Below, piece after piece: positions 1 to 15,026 of a stretch of DNA of 21,298 nucleotides; the first letter of the stretch is position 1; each line of letters starts with the position of its first letter. Under the pieces are notes generated by a model. It was not told the origin of the DNA and did no database searches. It saw only the letters and a program-made list of their open reading frames with translations. This DNA is from a virus. The position numbers and the translations under genes are program-made. Location: positions 1-21,298 of the IMG/VR virus record IMGVR_UViG_3300044720_000024; one strand, given 5' to 3'.

Positions 1-2393
1 GAAACAACAGGCCCGCCGAGCATCGAGAACACGGACTTCCACCCCGGAGCGAGGTCCTCGACCGGCGCGGTGCCGGGCAGCTGAGCGCCGAGCAGGTACC
101 AGTCGTTGCCGATTTTGACCGGGACGCCACCCTGATCGACGGCGTACTGGCGGAACTTCTCGACGTTGGCGGTGCCTCCGCCGGCGGCCGTGAGTTCCTG
201 ATAGGCGTGCGCCACGGCCGTGAACTTGCCGGGCTGGCGCGCAAAGGATGCACCCTGCAGCGGAGCGTTCTTTCTCATGAAGGTCCAAAACGGAATCGCC
301 CGTTTCAGGGAGCGTTCGGTAGCGGTGAGATCGCCGTAGTCGAACAAGTACTTCTTGACCGAGCGCGCTGCCTCATCCGCAGAGCCCAGCGTCTTGAGCT
401 TCGAGATGAAATGCGCAAGGCGAGCGTTTGTTTCAACTGCTGAGCCGACCGATCGACCTGACCGCATCAGGGCGTTCTCGGTAGATCCGAGGTTGACAGC
501 GCGGCCGACGTTCTTGAGCTTCTGACCCTTTGCGACGCGCGTGAGCTTTGCGCCGGCGCCGGTCCCCAGGTCGGTAGCGAGGAAGCCCTCCTCGATAACA
601 CCATGCTTCTTCGCCAGTTCGAAGATCTTGCGGTCCGCTAACGACAACGCTTCGACGCCGCCCTTGTGCGCCATAGCTTGGATCTTGGCCGCCTGGGCAT
701 AGTCCCGAGGGTTCTTCACACCGGCGAGGAAGTTGTTAAAGATGTTGCCCTCGGCGTTGCGGGCGTGGAAGCCCACGCCGCCGACTACGGGGACTGTCGC
801 ATAGCCCTTCCAGAGCGTTCCGAGCTTGCCCAGCAACCCGTGGAACTCCTTGAGCGCCTCGTCGTTGGTGATGACGTCGCGCACTTTCGCTATCTCGTTA
901 GCCACGTCGGGGTGCGCGATCAATCGCCCAAGCGGACCGGCGTCAAACTCGACATGCCCTAGCGCCTTTTTCGCCGTTCCGGCGACTGCCACTAGTGGCG
1001 AGCCGTGAGCGTCCTTGATCTTGGCGAGCTCGTCGACGAACCCGCGCTCAGCGATCGCCCTCTCGGCATGGGCACGACGAGCCGCCACTCGCGTCAGCGC
1101 TGTGTCATTCGGGTTGTACAGCGGACCCTTGAGTGCGCCGGCATCGCGCAGCTTCCCTCCGATTACCTGCTCCACTTGGTGCGCTGGCGCCTCGGGCATC
1201 AGCGTGCGCGCGTGGACGTGGCCGCCCTGTTCGAATGCCGACTGGATTTCGGTCGGCGGCACACCGATGCGCTCAGCTAACACGGGATCGTGGTTAATCG
1301 CTGTGCGCGCCCGTTTGGTGAGTTGGGGCCGCGGAAGGTACTCGGCGCGCTCGTGCGGCAGAACACCGGCTGCCAGCTGGCGCTGCGTGGTCTCATCCCC
1401 GATGGCGCGCAGTTCGTCAACGAGCGGACGAAGGTGGTCAGGCACCTGGATTGCCTCACCCCCGACATCGAGCGCCGGGCCAACGATGTGCTCGAGCTCC
1501 GACACCGAGACCTTGGCGCTCTTAGCGACGTTGTAGATGCGATCGGCGGTTTCCGTCGATGCATTGCTCGCCGCTGCGCGAGCGCGTGCGGCCGCCGCTC
1601 CGACATCATCGGCCGTCTGTTTGCCCAGGGACCGAGCCAGGGCGGAGCGCGGCGTGATCGCGGCGAGTGGCTTGAGGTCTGCGAGCTTGCGTCCGGCTTG
1701 GCGGGCCGCTGCGGCGCCAGGGATCTTCCCCTCGGGAATGACGGTGTGGCCAGCGACCTTCACGCCGCCCTGGGCGTTGCGATCGAGCGCCTTGAGTACC
1801 CTGTCGGCTGCCTTGGCCGAGCCACCCTCCTGTGCAGCGATGTGCTCGGCAACCTTCTTGCGCAGATCGCCCTGCAGCACCTTCTTGGCGCCGCGCTTGG
1901 CCACCTCCTCGGCCACGTCCTTGCCCGCTGACTCAGCTACGTGCTTGAGGCCGACCTTCGCCGCAGCGCTGGTGCCGAACGAAACATATGTCGTCGGGTC
2001 TAGAGCAATGTCCCCGGCAAAATTCAGGGCAAAGCCCGCCGCCCCCTTGACCTTCTCCTCGCCGAGAATCGCTTTCTGGAAGCTTTGCTTCCGTCGCCCG
2101 GACGCAGCATCACGTAGTTCACGCAAGAGACCACCAGTGCCGCGGTATTCGTCGTCGGCGTGCGCACGGTTCCCGGCGAGCACTTTGACCGTCTGAGTGC
2201 CGCGATCAAGAACATCGAGCGCTCCCTTTACGCCACCGCCGGTGACGCCACCGATCTTGGAGAGCAGGTTCTTCTTCTTCGGCTTCGACGAACCGCTCGA
2301 CGAGCCAGATCCATGATTCAGCAGGCTGCCGCCTGACGAACCACCACCACTCGTCGAGCCGCCGCCTTTGCCTCCGTCGATGAGGCTGGGCAC
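1..2393 (-). CDS. Large internal virion / ejection protein, 3' end outside window
   Basis: The minus-strand frame is open from a GTG directly after the upstream stop (TAG at 2396-2394) to the left edge: 797 codons with no stop, so the C-terminus is missing. The first 40 or so residues are Gly/Ser-rich, followed by a short basic patch (KPKKK). The rest is mostly Ala/Lys/Glu-rich and predicted helical. Segments resembling ones I know from large phage internal or ejection proteins include ALDPTTYVSFG (about 130-140), HARNAEGNIFNNFLAG (543-558) and LFDYGDLT followed by IPFWTFMRKNAPLQ (683-713). Size, composition and position after the wall-cutting enzymes suggest a protein packed in the head and ejected with DNA, like T7 gp15/gp16 in role; this is inference. 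The start is GTG with no clear Shine-Dalgarno, so translational coupling to the upstream gene is likely. Function is moderately sure; that it is a real gene is nearly certain. Confidence 0.8.
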   Translation of the reverse strand, partial: MPSLIDGGKGGGSTSGGGSSGGSLLNHGSGSSSGSSKPKKKNLLSKIGGVTGGGVKGALDVLDRGTQTVKVLAGNRAHADDEYRGTGGLLRELRDAASGRRKQSFQKAILGEEKVKGAAGFALNFAGDIALDPTTYVSFGTSAAAKVGLKHVAESAGKDVAEEVAKRGAKKVLQGDLRKKVAEHIAAQEGGSAKAADRVLKALDRNAQGGVKVAGHTVIPEGKIPGAAAARQAGRKLADLKPLAAITPRSALARSLGKQTADDVGAAAARARAAASNASTETADRIYNVAKSAKVSVSELEHIVGPALDVGGEAIQVPDHLRPLVDELRAIGDETTQRQLAAGVLPHERAEYLPRPQLTKRARTAINHDPVLAERIGVPPTEIQSAFEQGGHVHARTLMPEAPAHQVEQVIGGKLRDAGALKGPLYNPNDTALTRVAARRAHAERAIAERGFVDELAKIKDAHGSPLVAVAGTAKKALGHVEFDAGPLGRLIAHPDVANEIAKVRDVITNDEALKEFHGLLGKLGTLWKGYATVPVVGGVGFHARNAEGNIFNNFLAGVKNPRDYAQAAKIQAMAHKGGVEALSLADRKIFELAKKHGVIEEGFLATDLGTGAGAKLTRVAKGQKLKNVGRAVNLGSTENALMRSGRSVGSAVETNARLAHFISKLKTLGSADEAARSVKKYLFDYGDLTATERSLKRAIPFWTFMRKNAPLQGASFARQPGKFTAVAHAYQELTAAGGGTANVEKFRQYAVDQGGVPVKIGNDWYLLGAQLPGTAPVEDLAPGWKSVFSMLGGPVV

Positions 2394-3385: not shown

Positions 3386-3392
3386 CCTCCTT
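3386..3392 (-). promoter_or_regulatory. Shine-Dalgarno that fixes the TTG start at 3380
   Basis: The minus strand reads TGAAGGAGGCCCACTTG. The TGA stop of the endonuclease gene overlaps the first base of AAGGAGG, and five bases separate it from TTG. This is among the best ribosome-binding sites in the window and the main reason for choosing TTG over the distant ATG. Confidence 0.8.
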
Positions 3393-3817
3393 CAAACGAC
3401 GGCAGCAGCCTCCAAGTACTCGGCGGCGCGGCGGATGCGTTCGGGGTCGTGAGCGAGTTGACCGATCGCTCGATTGCATTGCGAGCAGAGCAAGCCGCGG
3501 ACGTGACCCGAATCGGCATCGTGGTCAACAGCGAGTCGCCGACCGATGCAGTCGAGCGCGGTGTGGCAGATGGCGCAGCCGCCATCCTGAGCGGCCAGCA
3601 TCTCGTCGTATTGGTCGGCGGTGATGCCGTACTTGCGGATGAGATGGGTGTAGCGACGCCACCGCAGGGCGCGCTCACGATCCGGTCCAGTGAGCTGCGC
3701 CTTGGTGGTCTCGTACCAACAGGGTTTGCACCACGCCTGCACGCCGTCGCTCGTCGACCGGTTCTTCCAGAACTCGGTGAGTGGTTTGGTCTCGCCGCAC
3801 TTCGGACAACGCTTCAT
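3392..3817 (-). CDS. Endonuclease VII-type HNH (His-Me finger) nuclease, 141 aa
   Basis: The protein begins with a zinc finger (C4-x2-C7 ... C30-x2-C33, in the common CPKCGETKPLTEFWKN context). It continues with the recombination endonuclease VII fold: structural zinc ligands C81-x2-C84 and C111-x2-C114, catalytic DHD at 98-100, and N115 in LLCSQCNRAIG. A helical tail (HDPERIRRAAEYLE) matches the usual end of the family. T4 endonuclease VII (gp49) resolves branched DNA before packaging; stand-alone relatives in phages may do this or nick DNA in a homing-like way. This copy sits among virion genes rather than with replication or packaging genes. No Shine-Dalgarno is evident ahead of the ATG, and the 36-bp spacer is the longest between genes from 9739 to the left edge. 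That may mean an inserted cargo gene. Confidence 0.9.
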   Translation of the reverse strand: MKRCPKCGETKPLTEFWKNRSTSDGVQAWCKPCWYETTKAQLTGPDRERALRWRRYTHLIRKYGITADQYDEMLAAQDGGCAICHTALDCIGRRLAVDHDADSGHVRGLLCSQCNRAIGQLAHDPERIRRAAEYLEAAAVV

Positions 3818-3853: not shown

Positions 3854-4369
3854 TCAATACCAACCGTGGCTCCTCCACCATTCGACCGCCTGCTCTGGCG
3901 TCCCGTAGCGCTGCCTCACGTACAGGCGGAACATGGCGAGTTGCTGGGTGGGGTCAGTCGTGTCCGGGTTGGCGATGCCGAGTTGCCGGGCGTAGGACTG
4001 CCGGTTGGTATCGACGAGCTGGCCCAGGCCGAAGGCGTGGCCGAGGTTCTTCCCGCCGGAGATCACAGCCTGCGGATTCCGTGCTGTCGTGCTGCCGCCC
4101 GACTCGCGCTGGATGATCCAGGCCTCGGCCGGGGAAAGGTTGAGGCCTGCGAGGTTGGCCTTGAACGAGACACCACCCGGCGCCGATGCAAGCCCTATCG
4201 ACGACGCGGCCGGCTGCTGCGCCGCTACGGACTGCGCGAGCTGCTGGGGATCGATGCGGGGAACCTCGGCGAGTGGCGCCGGCGCATCGGCGATTCCGCT
4301 GATGCCCTGACGGGCGAGCGCTACCCGCTCCTGCAGCCCGCGCAGGTAATCGGCGACCTGCGTGCTCAC
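3854..4369 (-). CDS. Virion-associated lytic transglycosylase, 171 aa
   Basis: The GTG start overlaps the peptidase stop as GTGA. Residues 78-171 form a small soluble-lytic-transglycosylase/goose-lysozyme-like domain. The probable catalytic glutamate is E89 in IIQRES; the AFGLGQL motif is at 112-118; and the ending YGTPEQAVEWWRSHGWY is typical of actinobacterial and phage forms of this domain. The enzyme would cleave the MurNAc-GlcNAc bond of peptidoglycan. There is no signal peptide or membrane segment and no holin next to it, and it lies in the structural cluster, so a virion-borne role in cell-wall penetration is more likely than end-of-cycle lysis. Residues 8-58 align with the N-terminus of the neighbouring peptidase and look like a shared tag or docking helix pair. 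The family call is strong; the virion location is inferred from context. Confidence 0.88.
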   Translation of the reverse strand: MSTQVADYLRGLQERVALARQGISGIADAPAPLAEVPRIDPQQLAQSVAAQQPAASSIGLASAPGGVSFKANLAGLNLSPAEAWIIQRESGGSTTARNPQAVISGGKNLGHAFGLGQLVDTNRQSYARQLGIANPDTTDPTQQLAMFRLYVRQRYGTPEQAVEWWRSHGWY

Positions 4370-4881
4370 CCCCGCGATCCGATCGGCTCGACGTGCCAAT
4401 CCTCGTACTGCATTGGAAACCACAGCCCGAACTGCCGGGCGTTGGCGTGGGCCCACTTGACGAGTGCCGGCGAGGAGTAGGCCAGGTCGGCGGCGATGCC
4501 TTCCTCGTGCTTCGAGTGACCCGGGCGCGCCACGTACTTGCCGGTCTTGTCGGAGCGGTTCCAGAGCGCCCACTGCTCGGCGTTGGAGCGGCGACCGCTC
4601 TTGACGCCGAGCTTGCCCGGTGCGGCAGCGAACATCGCACTGAGCCGCCGCTGGAATTCGCTCTGCAGTCCGGCAGCGGTGCCATTGCCACCATGGCCGT
4701 CGTAGGGCGTCGTGATGGGCGGAGCCGCCCGTTGCGTCGCCACAGCGTTGAGGAGCACGGAAGGATCGGCGTGCGGGATCGACGACAATGCCGCCGGGCC
4801 GATACCAGCGTCCGCGATACCCGACCGGGCCGTCGCCACACGCTGCGCGAGCTGCTCGAGGAACGGCGCCAAGTCCGGCAC
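4366..4881 (-). CDS. M15-family (VanY-like) zinc peptidase, virion-associated, 171 aa
   Basis: The C-terminal half (about 95-171) carries the zinc signature SxHxxGxAxD as SKHEEGIAAD (H125, D132) and the second part EDWHVEP (E160 likely catalytic, H163 third zinc ligand). SGRRSNAEQWALW before it matches the usual SGYRS..EQ element of phage D-alanyl-D-alanine carboxypeptidase/endopeptidase-type endolysins. It should cut peptide cross-links or stems of peptidoglycan. Residues 1-57 are an Ala-rich helical module shared with the next gene. The start is GTG, 5 bp after the stop of the upstream gene, with only a weak G-rich ribosome-binding site. No export signal is present. Placement beside a transglycosylase and helical internal proteins points to wall digestion during infection. 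Confidence 0.9.
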   Translation of the reverse strand: MPDLAPFLEQLAQRVATARSGIADAGIGPAALSSIPHADPSVLLNAVATQRAAPPITTPYDGHGGNGTAAGLQSEFQRRLSAMFAAAPGKLGVKSGRRSNAEQWALWNRSDKTGKYVARPGHSKHEEGIAADLAYSSPALVKWAHANARQFGLWFPMQYEDWHVEPIGSRG

Positions 4882-4886
4882 GTTGG

Positions 4887-5549
4887 TCAGTAAGCCCCGA
4901 GGTAGCTCTGTCCGGCGCTCGTGAGCGTCTGCTCGGCGCGTTGGCGTGCGATCTCGGACAACCTCCGCTGCAACTCGGAGTTGACCGCGGCGACCTGGTC
5001 GGCCGTCGTGCCCTCGAGGGAGCTCGTCGCCTGCCCCTCTGCATACCGCTGGCGGCTCAGGCCCTTCTCGGTCTCACCTGATCGGTAGAGCCCGCGGGCT
5101 TCCATGTTGCCGGCGATGTTGCGCCGCGCCTCCTCGCCGGCGAAGGAGATCTCAGGCAGCCGACGCGAGAGCTCACGGTTGAGCAGGTCGATCCGGCTCG
5201 CGCCCGACGCACGCAGATCCGACTCTTCGGCGCCCAGCGCTCGAAGGAAGGCGAGATAGGCCGGATTCGCGCCCAGGGACGCCGGTCCGGCACCGATGCC
5301 GGCGGAGCCACCCGCAAGCCCTGCACCGCCGAACGGATCGGCATAGCCACCGCCGCCGCCGCTCGCGTAGCCGTAGTCCGCCGGTTCGGTCGCGGGTGCC
5401 GGGCGAGCCATCAGCTCGCGCGAGCGATCCGCAAACGTGTACGGCTTCGCCGGCGGTGGCGCCTCCGGGCGCGGTTGCGAGTAGGTGGACCTACCGGTGG
5501 TGTTCGGAGCGCCCGGGTTCTTTACATACATCCCACCGTCTGCGGCCAT
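4887..5549 (-). CDS. Helical virion protein with Gly/Pro-rich N-terminus, 220 aa
   Basis: The ATG is preceded by GGAGG with a 4-nt spacer, which fixes the start; longer in-frame readings have shadow-like Arg/His-rich sequence. Residues 1-45 are Pro/Ser-rich and 60-95 Gly/Ala-rich (ASGGGGGYADPFGGAGLAGG). Residues 95-215 are amphipathic helices rich in Arg, Glu and Ala (LLNRELSRRLPEISFAGEEA, RNIAGNMEARGLYRSGETEK), with a GLxRSG pattern I associate with phage internal or pre-ejection proteins. No enzymatic motif is visible. The neighbours are a fibre-tip-like gene upstream and the two wall hydrolases downstream. A structural or ejected virion role is likely; no precise family can be given. Confidence 0.8.
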   Translation of the reverse strand: MAADGGMYVKNPGAPNTTGRSTYSQPRPEAPPPAKPYTFADRSRELMARPAPATEPADYGYASGGGGGYADPFGGAGLAGGSAGIGAGPASLGANPAYLAFLRALGAEESDLRASGASRIDLLNRELSRRLPEISFAGEEARRNIAGNMEARGLYRSGETEKGLSRQRYAEGQATSSLEGTTADQVAAVNSELQRRLSEIARQRAEQTLTSAGQSYLGAY

Positions 5550-5553
5550 GTGT

Positions 5554-5558
5554 CCTCC
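5554..5558 (-). promoter_or_regulatory. Ribosome-binding site fixing the start at 5549
   Basis: The minus strand reads TAGGAGGACACATG: the stop codon TAG of the fibre-tip-like gene runs directly into GGAGG, four bases before the ATG. Confidence 0.75.
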
Positions 5559-6037
5559 TAGAAACCGAATGCGAGCCAGTCGACGCGCCACGAACCGGTT
5601 GTGCGTTCCGTGGAGCCCGACATGATCTGAGCCTTGAAACCCTGCAGCGACTTCGACGACTGGACCGACTGCACGGTCTCGCCACCGGTGTGTCCATCCC
5701 CGGCGCTGACGACAACGCAGACCAGGCCGTGGGGGAAGGCACTGGGAAACACGATGTCGGCGCCGCCGGCGGTCGCCGTGATGACCGTTGACCCGCCCTG
5801 CACCTGGAAGCCGACACGGCTGAGTGGTGTCGTGCCGACGGCGATGTCGTTCGCACCGGCGCTGGTGACCCACGTGCCGTCGAGGAAGTCCTCGAGCTCG
5901 CGGTCCCTGTTGTTGAAGGCCTCGGCGACGCCGTCGATCGCCTTGACGATCTTCGCATCGAGGCCGAGCTTCTTGAGTCCGAGCGCATCGAGAATCGCCT
6001 GTGTGTTGGTGAGGTACTCGAAGTACTGATCAGCCAT
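5558..6037 (-). CDS. Small tail-fibre-tip-like protein, 159 aa
   Basis: The ATG shares one base with the stop of the nozzle-like gene (TGATG), so translation is probably coupled. Residues 1-50 are helical (LTNTQAILDALGLKKLGLDA...ELEDFL). From about residue 75 the protein is beta-rich: ADIVFPSAFPHGLVCVVVSA, and the end VDWLAFGF. This arrangement (a Phe-Pro strand pair, a valine-rich strand, and an ending like W-x-A-x-G-F/Y) recalls C-terminal tip domains of phage tail fibres such as the gp53-like fibre domain. Its place just after the nozzle genes fits a tail appendage or receptor-binding subunit. The resemblance is by motif pattern only and the fold call is tentative. Confidence 0.7.
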   Translation of the reverse strand: MADQYFEYLTNTQAILDALGLKKLGLDAKIVKAIDGVAEAFNNRDRELEDFLDGTWVTSAGANDIAVGTTPLSRVGFQVQGGSTVITATAGGADIVFPSAFPHGLVCVVVSAGDGHTGGETVQSVQSSKSLQGFKAQIMSGSTERTTGSWRVDWLAFGF

Positions 6038-7572
6038 CAGATGCCCTGGACCGGGCGGGTGTCGTAGAAGAGGTGCAGGCGCTGGATGGCGCACCCCACG
6101 ATGCCGGTGACCTTGAGCCGGAAGCCGGAGGCGAAGTTGGTGTTGGCAAAGGTCAGCCGCCGGCTATCGGTCGTTCCCGATACCGACGCCTCGGCGGCGT
6201 CCTCGGTGAATGTCGTCGATTGCGGAGCCCCGTCGCCGCTGCCGTCACGGTGCGTCGGTGTCACTTCGACGGTGATCGTGTTGTCGCCGCCAAAGCCGTG
6301 GTTCCACTTCTTGAAGTCGACGACGACGCCGACGAGCGAGATCTCGTTCTGCTTGGGATCGACGAACTCGGGCAGCGTGAACTCGGAGGTGAAGGCGACG
6401 CCGGCGTCGTCGAGCGACTCGAACGTCTTGCCGTCAAAGGGCGGGCGATCGAGGTCGTAGCTCCACGAATAGAACTTGGCGGCCGTGCCGGCGGCGCCGC
6501 CGTCGCAGATGATCGCCCGTCGCGAGGTGTCCTCACGGCCGTCGACCCAGCCAGAGATCGACTTGCCGAAGGCGTGCTTGGTCCACACGCCGCGGTGGAA
6601 GAGCAGCGCCTGGTCGTCGTAGATCGAGTCGTTGCCGCCGGTGACCGCGAGCAGCTCCTCGGACTTGGCCAGGCCCGCCATGCCGACCTTCGGCGTGTTG
6701 CCCGTGTCGTCGTAGTCCCCCGTGAGAGCGGTGAGACTGAGATGCTCGAGGCGCTGGAACTTGTCACCGGCGACGCGCACCGGATAGTCGCCTTCCTCGG
6801 CCACAAACCAGGTGTCCTCGCCACCTACGAGGGCCCAGCGCGTGGGCGCTGCGGTGGTATCGCCCGGTCGCAGACCGCGGGCGACCTTGCCCCAACGCTC
6901 GGAGATCGGAGGGATGCCGGCCAACGTCCACCACGAGAAATCGGTCTTGGCCGCCACCAGCTGATGCGTTGCGCCGAACAGGGCGACGATCGGGTAATCC
7001 GCGGAGCCCAGGTCGATGAAGCCGGCCGCCGGCCAGTCGGTGTAGTTACGCCACCTCGAGTACTGGATCCGATTGGGATGAGCAGCGGTGCCGCCAACGA
7101 GCATGCGATCGGCGAACAGCGTCACGACACGGCCGCCGGGTGACCCGCTGACACCTGCCACCGTCCCGGCGCCGTGGTCGAGTGTGTAGACCTTGTCGCC
7201 GTAGTTCGTGATGTACGTCGAGTCGCCGACATTGACGACCGAGCGGATCCGGCCGGACACTGCGGCGTCGAGCGAGCCGAGCGATCGCGACGCCGGTGAC
7301 AGCGCTGAGAGCCCGAAGTCGCGCACGGCGGTTCCGACGATGACCCAGGCCTTCTGCTGGTAGGGGTGCACGCCGAAGCCGCGGACGACGCCGGCGGGGA
7401 TGCCCGAGGGCGCCAGGTCGACGAGACCCGAACGAGGACACAGCGTGCCGTCGAGGAGCCGCACGACGTTGTTGCCGGTGAAGCTGCCCTTTGGTGCGAT
7501 GACGTCGCCCAGGAGGCCGAACTCACCGCCACTGAAATCGGCGAACGTGACGAGCGCCTTACCGCTAGGCAC
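6037..7572 (-). CDS. Tail nozzle-like protein, downstream paralogue, 511 aa
   Basis: The start is GTG at 7572, overlapping the upstream stop by 8 bp (GTGCCTAG). I prefer it over an ATG at 7632 because it aligns the N-terminus with that of the upstream paralogue and avoids a Cys/Arg-rich shadow segment. The two proteins are colinear over their full length: GGEFGLLG (15-22), PRSGLVD (46-52), PGGRVVTLFADR, then a highly conserved block at 298-379 with GVWTKHAFGKSISGWVDG, and the ending TGIVGCAIQRLH. Beta-rich sequence with repeated Trp/Tyr-Asp turns suggests a propeller- or barrel-based ring protein. Position directly after the gp11-like adaptor fits a T7 gp12-like nozzle, though it is shorter than T7 gp12 (about 790 residues). 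The role is inferred from order and composition, not from a diagnostic motif. Confidence 0.8.
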   Translation of the reverse strand: MPSGKALVTFADFSGGEFGLLGDVIAPKGSFTGNNVVRLLDGTLCPRSGLVDLAPSGIPAGVVRGFGVHPYQQKAWVIVGTAVRDFGLSALSPASRSLGSLDAAVSGRIRSVVNVGDSTYITNYGDKVYTLDHGAGTVAGVSGSPGGRVVTLFADRMLVGGTAAHPNRIQYSRWRNYTDWPAAGFIDLGSADYPIVALFGATHQLVAAKTDFSWWTLAGIPPISERWGKVARGLRPGDTTAAPTRWALVGGEDTWFVAEEGDYPVRVAGDKFQRLEHLSLTALTGDYDDTGNTPKVGMAGLAKSEELLAVTGGNDSIYDDQALLFHRGVWTKHAFGKSISGWVDGREDTSRRAIICDGGAAGTAAKFYSWSYDLDRPPFDGKTFESLDDAGVAFTSEFTLPEFVDPKQNEISLVGVVVDFKKWNHGFGGDNTITVEVTPTHRDGSGDGAPQSTTFTEDAAEASVSGTTDSRRLTFANTNFASGFRLKVTGIVGCAIQRLHLFYDTRPVQGI

Positions 7573-9115
7573 TCGAATCCACCGATCGCTGCGGACGTTC
7601 GTCGAGCAGCACCCGCACCTTCTGGATGGCACAACCGACGATGCCCGTGATCTTCACTCGCACGCCTTCGCCCGATGCGGTGTCGTCGGCGAACGTGGCC
7701 GTAAAGGCATCGTCTTGACCAGCGACGCCACCAGTCGGCGTCGCGGCTGATTCGGTGAATGTGTCGTTGACGACCGCGCCCTCGCCTCCGTCGATGTGCA
7801 ACGGAGTGACCTCGACCGTGAAGCTGTTGTTGCCGCCGTAGCCATGCGCCCACTTGCGGAACTCGACGGTGACGCCGGCGACGAGGAACTCGCCTTCGAC
7901 CTCGTGCCACCAGGCCGGCAGGGTGAACTCCGATGTGAACGCCGTCCCCGCATCCGTGTTCTTCTCATAGGCGTTGGCGGCGAACGGCGGGCGGGTGTTG
8001 CCGTAGTGCCAGATGTAGAACTTCGGCGCAACGCCGCCGGCGCCGCCGTCGGTGAGGAACACGCGCCGGTAGGTGTCGTTGAGGCCCTCCACCCAACCGG
8101 AGATGTTCTTGCCGAACGTGTGCCTCGACCACACGCCGTTGTGCAGCAGCAGGCCCTGGTTGTCGTAGCTGCCGCTGTTGGCGCCAGTGGCGAAGAACAT
8201 CTCATCGGGCATCAGCAGGCCGGTGACGCCGATCTTTGGCGTGCCTGAGTCCGGGAACGTGTCGCCGTTCTTGGTCAGGGTCAGGTAGTCCTCGTGCCGC
8301 ATTCCAGGACTGCCGGTGAACACGGTCGGGTACTCGCCGTTGTACGGGAGGAACCACACCTTGCCGTCGCCGGCGACAGCCTGGCGAGTGACCGCAGCGA
8401 TGGCGTCGGGTGACGGTGACGCGCCCCGCACGATCTCGCGCAATACGTCATTGACGCCAGGAACGCCAGTGAGCACCCACCACGAGCCCTCGGCCTTGAC
8501 GATCACGAGACGCGAGCCGCTGCCATGAAGGCCGGTGATTGGCGAGGGCCCGCCGACATCGAAGTAGTCGGTGGGGTCCCAGGTGTCGACGAGCCCGGGA
8601 GCCGAGAAGTACACGCGGTTGGGGTTGGCCGACTTGCCTGCCGTGACGTAGCGATCACCCAGGCGAGCGGCGGTGCGGCCGCCGGGCATCTGCGTCAGCG
8701 CAGTGCAGGCGGCGCCGGCGTGGTCGATGTAGTACCCCTGGTCGTCGAGCACGGCGAAGGCGGTGGTGTTGTACGTCGTGTCGATGCCGCGGACACGGTT
8801 GGTCGGTGTCGCGGTGATGACGTTGGTGCCGACGGTGACGACGGCATTTCCGGGTGCATCGGTGACCTGGTACACGTTCCGGCCGATGACGAACCACACC
8901 TTGCCGGCGCTCGGGTTGTGGCCGAAGCCGGCGACGGCGCCCGTGGGCGTGCTCGTCGTGGCCATATCGACAAGGCCGCTGCGGGGGCCGATCGAACCGT
9001 CGATATAACGCAGGACGTTCTTGCCGGTCCATGAGCCGCGAGGTGCCTCGCGCTCGCCGAGCAGGCCGAACTCTCCGGCATCGAAACGATCGAAAACGAC
9101 GACCCGGCGCGGCAT
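7565..9115 (-). CDS. Tail nozzle-like protein, upstream paralogue, 516 aa
   Basis: The ATG directly follows the adaptor stop (TAGATG). N-terminal FDAGEFGLLG (11-20) and PRSGLVD (44-50) match the downstream paralogue. In residues 296-378 I count about 45 identities of 83, including GVWSRHTFGKNISGWVEG (327-344) and KFYIWHYGNTRPPF (365-378). The C-terminus has GTAFTSEFTLP, FRKWAHGYGGNN, TVEVTPLH and ITGIVGCAIQKV, again mirrored in the neighbour. The protein is beta-rich and lacks transmembrane segments, a signal peptide or catalytic motifs. The gene order adaptor then nozzle is that of T7-like and related short-tailed phages, so a tail ring or nozzle role is likely. An alternative is that one paralogue forms the ring and the other a distal tail knob. 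Confidence 0.82.
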   Translation of the reverse strand: MPRRVVVFDRFDAGEFGLLGEREAPRGSWTGKNVLRYIDGSIGPRSGLVDMATTSTPTGAVAGFGHNPSAGKVWFVIGRNVYQVTDAPGNAVVTVGTNVITATPTNRVRGIDTTYNTTAFAVLDDQGYYIDHAGAACTALTQMPGGRTAARLGDRYVTAGKSANPNRVYFSAPGLVDTWDPTDYFDVGGPSPITGLHGSGSRLVIVKAEGSWWVLTGVPGVNDVLREIVRGASPSPDAIAAVTRQAVAGDGKVWFLPYNGEYPTVFTGSPGMRHEDYLTLTKNGDTFPDSGTPKIGVTGLLMPDEMFFATGANSGSYDNQGLLLHNGVWSRHTFGKNISGWVEGLNDTYRRVFLTDGGAGGVAPKFYIWHYGNTRPPFAANAYEKNTDAGTAFTSEFTLPAWWHEVEGEFLVAGVTVEFRKWAHGYGGNNSFTVEVTPLHIDGGEGAVVNDTFTESAATPTGGVAGQDDAFTATFADDTASGEGVRVKITGIVGCAIQKVRVLLDERPQRSVDSSA

Positions 9116-14801: not shown

Positions 14802-15026
14802 CTAGGCCAGACCGACGAGCTGGGTGTCGCCCGCCTCGTCGTCGTCGTCCTTGCGCGGGCGCCGGCGGCGGGGCCGCTGGTCGATCCGCTCGAGGGTGAC
14901 GAGCTCGGCCGCGTCGCGGGCCATTGCCGCGTTGAGCAGTCGCCGCCTCTCGACGGCGACCTGACGCTCACGGATCAGCTGCGTCACCCACGAGGCGACG
15001 AGGAGGGCAGCGAGGACGTAGACCAC
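14802..15026 (-). CDS. Small one-pass membrane protein, 74 aa
   Basis: The GTG start shares one base with the stop of the upstream gene (TAGTG). Residues 2-17 (VYVLAALLVASWVTQL) form one short hydrophobic segment, followed by a basic helix (IRERQVAVERRRLLNAAMAR) and a tail with a strong basic run (RPRRRRPRK) next to an acidic run (DDDDE). A single N-terminal anchor with the charged part in the cytoplasm is predicted. It is too short and too lopsided to call a holin with confidence. Placement beside the portal gene suggests a virion-assembly or membrane-tethering role, but function is unknown. Confidence 0.65.
   Translation of the reverse strand: MVYVLAALLVASWVTQLIRERQVAVERRRLLNAAMARDAAELVTLERIDQRPRRRRPRKDDDDEAGDTQLVGLA

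What the first reader, a model, noticed from the sequence alone, without database searches (positions are those of the whole stretch)
3854..4881. Two different wall-cutting enzymes share an N-terminal module of about 50 residues
Residues 7-56 of the M15 peptidase and 8-58 of the lytic transglycosylase align with roughly 19 identities (pattern L-x-x-L-x-x-RVA-x-AR-x-GI, then P-x-x-x-L...P-x-x-DP...L-x-x-x-VA-x-Q). Their catalytic domains are unrelated. A shared helical leader on adjacent enzymes looks like a recombined docking or packaging tag that places both on the same virion partner, perhaps the helical internal proteins nearby.
Basis: partly seen in the sequence, partly recalled or inferred. 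Interest (0 to 1): 0.82.

Follow-up and report, generated by a model that had tools for sequence, protein, structure and literature searches.

The report
Shared leader on two wall-cutting enzymes
In an uncultured short-tailed phage, two neighbouring genes for unrelated cell-wall-cutting enzymes begin with the same old, conserved stretch of about 50 residues, probably a tag that seats both enzymes on the same part of the virus particle, although no experiment yet shows they are in the particle.

Summary
An M15 (VanY-type) peptidase (4366-4881, -) and an SLT-type lytic transglycosylase (3854-4369, -) share their first ~53 residues: 21/51 identical, no gaps, pairwise E 5e-9; none of 20,000 shuffles and none of 2,140 Ala-rich helix-like control segments comes near. 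Similarity stops where the linkers begin. Synonymous sites look randomised while positions 1 and 2 do not, so the copies are old and held by selection on protein. Both are modelled (low confidence) as helix, Pro-containing loop, helix, then a flexible linker. The phage is a distant relative of Jasmine-type actinobacterial podoviruses. M15-LT pairs recur there next to the large internal-protein gene (Microbacterium phage Shocker gp38/gp39; contig L161), and one contig fuses SLT to an internal protein, which favours virion-associated enzymes over ordinary endolysins. But the module was not found in any collection searched beyond a near-identical contig, and the leaders of Shocker and L161 do not match it. 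Most likely: a duplicated docking leader that places two complementary wall-cutting activities on one partner in the ejection machinery. Docking, partner and virion location are inferred.

The parts
4723..4881 (-). shared N-terminal module, copy 1 (M15 residues 1-53): predicted helix 4-24, Pro-containing loop, helix 40-51
   Evidence: pLDDT about 67 in helix 1, 40-50 in the rest
4369..4683 (-). M15/VanY-type zinc peptidase domain (residues 67-171) with H125xxGxAxD132 and E160xWH163; stop codon 4366-4368
   Evidence: Pfam VanY E 2.5e-7; A7/A9 conservation; Foldseek to VanY, LdcB and Ply500
4208..4369 (-). shared N-terminal module, copy 2 (LT residues 1-54): predicted helix 3-24 and helix 41-50
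   Evidence: pLDDT 68/65 in helix 1, about 41-45 in the rest
3854..4132 (-). SLT-type lytic transglycosylase domain (residues 80-171, catalytic Glu candidate E89), with stop codon
   Evidence: Pfam SLT E 1.9e-4, 21.4 bits against cut-off 21.3; E89 nearly invariant in 29 aligned rows
4366..4369 (-). GTGA overlap: LT start codon overlaps the M15 stop codon (translational coupling likely)
   Evidence: sequence
4887..5549 (-). p220, gp35-family cassette protein; candidate docking partner
   Evidence: iterated profile matches Shocker gp35, Cellulosimicrobium phage DS1 4503-5246, L193 and L180
2394..3380 (-). p328, helical protein in the position of Shocker gp36; candidate docking partner
   Evidence: position and composition only; no sequence match found
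3..2393 (-). p797+, large internal protein (gp37 family), cut by the end of the window; candidate docking partner
   Evidence: 27% identity over about 300 residues to Shocker gp37, E 4e-8; 80 relatives in viral contigs

Best explanation
M15 and LT are most likely virion-associated lysins of a Jasminevirus-like podovirus, encoded as a translationally coupled pair within the internal (ejection) protein cassette. Each is built as module, flexible linker, catalytic domain. The module, two helices joined by a Pro-containing loop, arose once and was duplicated (or copied from one gene to the other) long ago; selection on the protein has since kept it. The likeliest reason to keep one leader on two unrelated enzymes is a common binding site: the module docks each enzyme to the same internal or tail partner (p220, p328, p797 or the portal vestibule), so that a glycan-cutting and a peptide-cutting activity enter the wall together when the DNA is ejected. 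Shown: homology of the modules, old divergence under constraint, domain identities, intact catalytic motifs, gene context, recurrence of the enzyme pair in relatives. Inferred: presence in the virion, docking, the partner, joint action.
For: Homology. Constraint: of 21 identical residues 8 use the identical codon, against 9.2 +- 2.2 expected at synonymous saturation, while codon positions 1 and 2 stay well above chance. Same predicted helix-loop-helix in both, then a low-confidence linker before the M15 fold. Catalytic motifs present. Context: the cassette runs TTA-TTB1-TTB2-fibre-p220-M15-LT-EndoVII-p328-p797. In relatives a gene next to the large protein is a wall hydrolase with a long N-terminal extension: Shocker gp38 M15 + gp39 SLT, L161 M15 + SLT, L193 and L160 M15, L144 and L200 SLT, Adat SLT_3-CHAP, DS1 NlpC/P60. 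In L146 an SLT domain (E 2.4e-25) is the C-terminus of a 620-aa helical protein encoded directly before the large protein. Shocker also has another M15 gene without a long leader (gp14), next to a two-helix membrane protein, gp15, that looks like the true lysis pair. In the window no TM protein adjoins M15-LT. Jasmine is a podovirus (PMC5513430); wall-hydrolase domains are known to move between ejection proteins (PMC8954989).
Against: No proteomics. The module was not found outside this phage, so its role rests on two copies. Leaders of the Shocker and L161 pairs do not match it or (convincingly) each other. In Adat and DS1 the corresponding hydrolase is followed by a small TM protein, as in a lysis cassette. 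Models of the module have low confidence. No partner has been identified.
Confidence: 0.5

Rival explanations
1. Heteromer: the two modules pair with each other (or form a mixed ring), so that M15 and LT act as one bifunctional lysin; the module is an oligomerisation domain, not a tag for a third protein.
For: Homologous helical segments in adjacent, translationally coupled genes. In a relative the two activities sit in one polypeptide: Adat gp27, SLT_3 + CHAP; M15 + SLT-like domains in single frames in L266 and L361.
Against: No model of the complex could be made. Helix 1 is not notably amphipathic (hydrophobic moment within the shuffled range). Needs no virion partner, but does not exclude one.
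Confidence: 0.2
2. Ordinary endolysins: M15 and LT are the lysis enzymes of the phage and the leader serves lysis (wall binding, timing or solubility).
For: Small single-domain M15 and SLT-like enzymes are common endolysins (PHROG lysis families among the M15 hits; Foldseek to Ply500 and LysB4). Annotators of Shocker call gp38/gp39 endolysins. Adat and DS1 have a TM protein next to the corresponding gene.
Against: No TM protein next to the pair here; it lies between internal-protein genes; no known wall-binding domain (Pfam shows only the catalytic domain of M15; in LT only SLT plus two sub-threshold hits). Shocker has a separate M15 + membrane-protein pair. The window is a fragment, so the true lysis genes of this phage are unseen.
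Confidence: 0.22
3. Neutral leftover: a 5' duplication gave both genes the same start; the leader is only a spacer and has no binding role.
For: Leaders in this family vary beyond recognition. Tandem duplication is at work nearby (TTB1/TTB2, 42% identity).
Against: With synonymous sites at saturation, 41% identity of a free spacer would not be expected; first and second codon positions are conserved.
Confidence: 0.08

Closest known systems
Ejection-protein wall hydrolases of podoviruses (T7 gp16 N-terminal transglycosylase; K1E/K1-5 gp35) reviewed in PMC8954989
   Same: Lytic enzyme encoded among the internal virion proteins; hydrolase domains move between them; here SLT is a C-terminal domain of an internal protein in relative L146.
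   Different: Here the enzymes are separate small proteins, two activities, joined only by a common leader; no similarity of the leader to any phage protein was found by tblastn.
Jasmine-type podovirus hydrolases: Arthrobacter phage Adat gp27 (SLT_3 + CHAP), Microbacterium phage Shocker gp38/gp39 (M15, SLT), Cellulosimicrobium phage DS1 NlpC/P60
   Same: Same phage lineage by capsid (30-35% identity) and large internal protein; same kind of gene in the same cassette with N-terminal extensions.
   Different: In them the gene follows the large protein; in the window it lies between p220 and p328. The Shocker leaders do not match the window module.
N-terminal loading signals of contractile injection systems (Photorhabdus virulence cassette, PMC11495950)
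   Same: Works-like comparison only: an N-terminal segment that directs cargo into a phage-tail-like particle (abstract).
   Different: Homology not tested; different particle; no AAA loading ATPase was looked for here.
N-terminal anchors of depolymerase receptor-binding proteins (Klebsiella phages, PMC6872550)
   Same: Works-like comparison only: an N-terminal anchor with a variable catalytic part (paper found, not read in full).
   Different: Those are external receptor-binding proteins; here the enzymes cut peptidoglycan and the leader is about 50 residues.

Membership tests
Peptidase family M15 (VanY, PF02557) | score above the curated cut-off | tested here: met
   31 bits against 25, E 2.5e-7
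Peptidase family M15 (VanY, PF02557) | HxxGxAxD and ExWH-type zinc and catalytic residues | tested here: met
   H125, D132, E160 and H163 present and conserved in alignments A7 and A9
Peptidase family M15 (VanY, PF02557) | M15 fold | tested here: met
   domain pLDDT about 90; Foldseek E 8e-8 to BaLdcB, also VanY and Ply500
SLT lytic transglycosylase (PF01464, GH23-like) | score above the curated cut-off | tested here: met
   21.4 bits against 21.3, E 1.9e-4; marginal
SLT lytic transglycosylase (PF01464, GH23-like) | catalytic Glu in an ES motif | tested here: met
   E89-S90 nearly invariant in A8 and A10
SLT lytic transglycosylase (PF01464, GH23-like) | lysozyme-like fold | tested here: inconclusive
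   all-helical model, mean pLDDT 55.6, no fold search run
Virion-associated lysin | gene within the structural gene cluster | tested here: met
   between p220 (gp35 family) and p328/p797 (gp37 family)
Virion-associated lysin | protein present in the virion | not testable with these tools
   no proteomics; uncultured phage
Endolysin of a lysis cassette | neighbouring holin-like TM protein | tested here: not met
   no TM segment in the genes beside M15-LT; the window is a fragment
Known cell-wall-binding domain (as leader) | Pfam match in the leader | tested here: not met
   no family overlaps residues 1-55 of either protein at E <= 0.1

The most novel reading that the evidence does not exclude
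The module is a virion-loading tag of a fast-changing kind: each phage of this lineage may have its own leader matched to its own internal proteins, and here one such tag has been put on two different wall enzymes so that both load onto equivalent sites of one core protein. The leader would then decide which enzymes a podovirus carries.
Probability: 0.3. Interest if true: 0.65.

Novelty: new variant of a known kind. Interest (0 to 1): 0.45.

Why it matters
How podoviruses of thick-walled actinobacteria get through the wall is poorly known; a 2022 review counts ejection proteins as absent from phi29-like phages of Gram-positive hosts (PMC8954989). A pair of enzymes with one shared leader gives a small, testable handle on which protein holds the enzymes in the particle and whether the leader alone is enough to load a cargo.

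Tried and rejected
(1) Module alone by tblastn against phages at E <= 10: one 26-residue Microviridae match at E 10, and none; against plasmids one at E 0.7. (2) Module alignment A1 in viral contigs: itself only; in genome contigs: none. (4) Module HMM over 28,401 frames of about 4.3 Mb of fetched loci: own copies at about 1e-30, next best E 0.009 among loci picked by the pattern itself. (5) 395 genomes of one actinobacterial class: five weak hits (best E 9.7e-5 per genome); the three that re-scored align inside long unrelated frames, not at an N-terminus; taken as chance. (6) Idea that the M15/LT pairs of relatives share leaders too: Shocker 586 of 5,000 shuffles reach the score; L161 18 of 5,000 but the match is largely Gly-rich; the leader of a close M15 relative (L160) against the M15 module 733 of 5,000. 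(7) The internal half of the L146 fusion as kin of p220: not significant; L146 matches Adat gp24 only at E 0.025. (8) Known wall-binding domain as leader: none. (9) MAFFT misaligned the module in A7, A8 and A10; A9 (aligned in part) and A11 were used for folding instead.

Full report
What is there. The window is a 21,298-base IMG/VR virus record. On the - strand, a 171-aa M15 peptidase gene (4881-4366, GTG) is followed by a 171-aa lytic transglycosylase gene (4369-3854, GTG) whose start overlaps the M15 stop as GTGA. M15 matches Pfam VanY (E 2.5e-7) and LT matches SLT (E 1.9e-4, just above the cut-off).

Is the shared leader real? Residues 3-53 of M15 and 4-54 of LT align without gaps, 21/51 identical, BLASTP E 5e-9. 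The Smith-Waterman score is 97; 20,000 pairs of shuffled leaders average 26.3 (sd 5.2) and never exceed 57. Against 2,140 real Ala-rich, helix-like segments with a proline from the fetched loci, the best score is 60 for one module and 54 for the other. Among all 231 pairs of gene starts in the window only the two tail-tubular-B paralogues score higher. A caution on that control: random pairs drawn within the control set reach 97 nine times in 20,000, probably because the set holds related or overlapping segments.

Age and constraint. DNA identity over the module is 51%. By codon position it is 0.51, 0.61 and 0.41, with 0.34, 0.28 and 0.35 expected from composition. Among the 21 identical residues 8 have the same codon; 9.2 +- 2.2 are expected if synonymous sites are fully randomised. 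The copies are therefore old, and what has been kept is the protein sequence. This rests on 51 codons.

Shape. AlphaFold models with both copies in the alignment (in A9 only in part) give helix 4-24 and 40-51 in M15 and 3-24 and 41-50 in LT, with pLDDT near 67 in the first helix and 40-50 beyond. The M15 domain is modelled at about 90 and matches VanY, LdcB and the phage endolysin Ply500. The LT model is poor (mean 55.6). The first helix is not more amphipathic than its shuffles.

Which phage. The capsid protein matches Cellulosimicrobium phage DS1, Microbacterium phage Shocker, Arthrobacter phage Jasmine and relatives, and two spring-water podoviruses at 30-35%; [quoted passage not shown] p797 is 27% identical to Shocker gp37 over about 300 residues. 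An iterated profile links p220 to Shocker gp35 and the corresponding DS1 gene. p328 lies where gp36 would be; no match was found.

The enzyme pair in relatives. A scan with the large protein brought 80 contigs; in 15 of them an M15 or LT domain was found within the fetched stretch, in several directly beside the large protein. M15 followed by LT occurs in Shocker (gp38/gp39) and in L161 (with L162, apparently the same phage), both after the large protein. Adat has SLT_3 and CHAP in one protein, DS1 an NlpC/P60 enzyme. In L146 an SLT domain is the end of a 620-aa helical protein encoded just before the large protein. The extensions before these catalytic domains are long (roughly 60 to 180 residues) but their sequences differ; none of those tested is detectably like the window module. 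Thus the pair is a recurring theme and the shared leader is, so far, private to this phage.

Virion or lysis? Position and the L146 fusion favour the virion. Shocker has a second M15 gene, gp14, that starts almost at its catalytic domain and is followed by a two-TM protein, gp15, a plausible lysis pair. No TM protein adjoins M15-LT in the window. Against this, Adat gp27 and the DS1 enzyme are each followed by a small TM protein, and annotators call Shocker gp38 and gp39 endolysins. I hold the virion role as more likely than not, not as shown.

Explanation. A leader kept on two unrelated enzymes through saturation of silent sites most simply means a shared binding task. Docking both to one virion partner is my first choice (0.5); ordinary endolysins with a common leader (0.22) and pairing of the modules with each other (0.2) are the main rivals. 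They overlap in part: a heteromer could also dock. How the leader came to both genes is open: duplication of a whole gene followed by replacement of one catalytic domain, or copying of the 5' end between two genes already adjacent. Since relatives have the pair without the shared leader, the second is attractive, but leaders that diverged beyond recognition would look the same.

Known and new. Hydrolase domains moving between ejection proteins are known (PMC8954989), and the enzymes are members of known families. New, as far as these searches go, is the same leader under two different wall-cutting domains in one cassette. The literature search was limited to an open-access library, so a published precedent may have been missed.

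Noticed in passing
window 6037-7632 and 7565-9115 (-): Two tandem tail-tubular-B-like paralogues, 42% identical over 514 residues; identical codons slightly above saturation (132 against 118.7 +- 6.7). A hetero-oligomeric nozzle is possible.
   Followed up: partly
window 3392-3817 (-): Recombination endonuclease VII (PF02945, E 8e-24) lies between LT and p328, inside the structural cassette; it may have come with the insertion of M15-LT.
   Followed up: no
L146 5699-7588: SLT domain fused to the C-terminus of a helical internal protein directly before the large protein.
   Followed up: partly
L262 2843-3637 and 3570-5153: LT-like gene followed by an M15 gene, reverse order, with a Gln-rich stretch before the M15 domain.
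   Followed up: no
L266 3165-5627; L361 3579-5729: M15 and SLT-like domains found in one open frame; L361 is a Solirubrobacterales MAG contig.
   Followed up: no
window 5558-6094 (-): Short protein with a gp53-like tail-fibre C-terminus (PF21882, E 1e-7) between TTB2 and p220.
   Followed up: no
window 14802-15026 (-): 74-aa protein with one N-terminal TM segment beside the portal gene.
   Followed up: no
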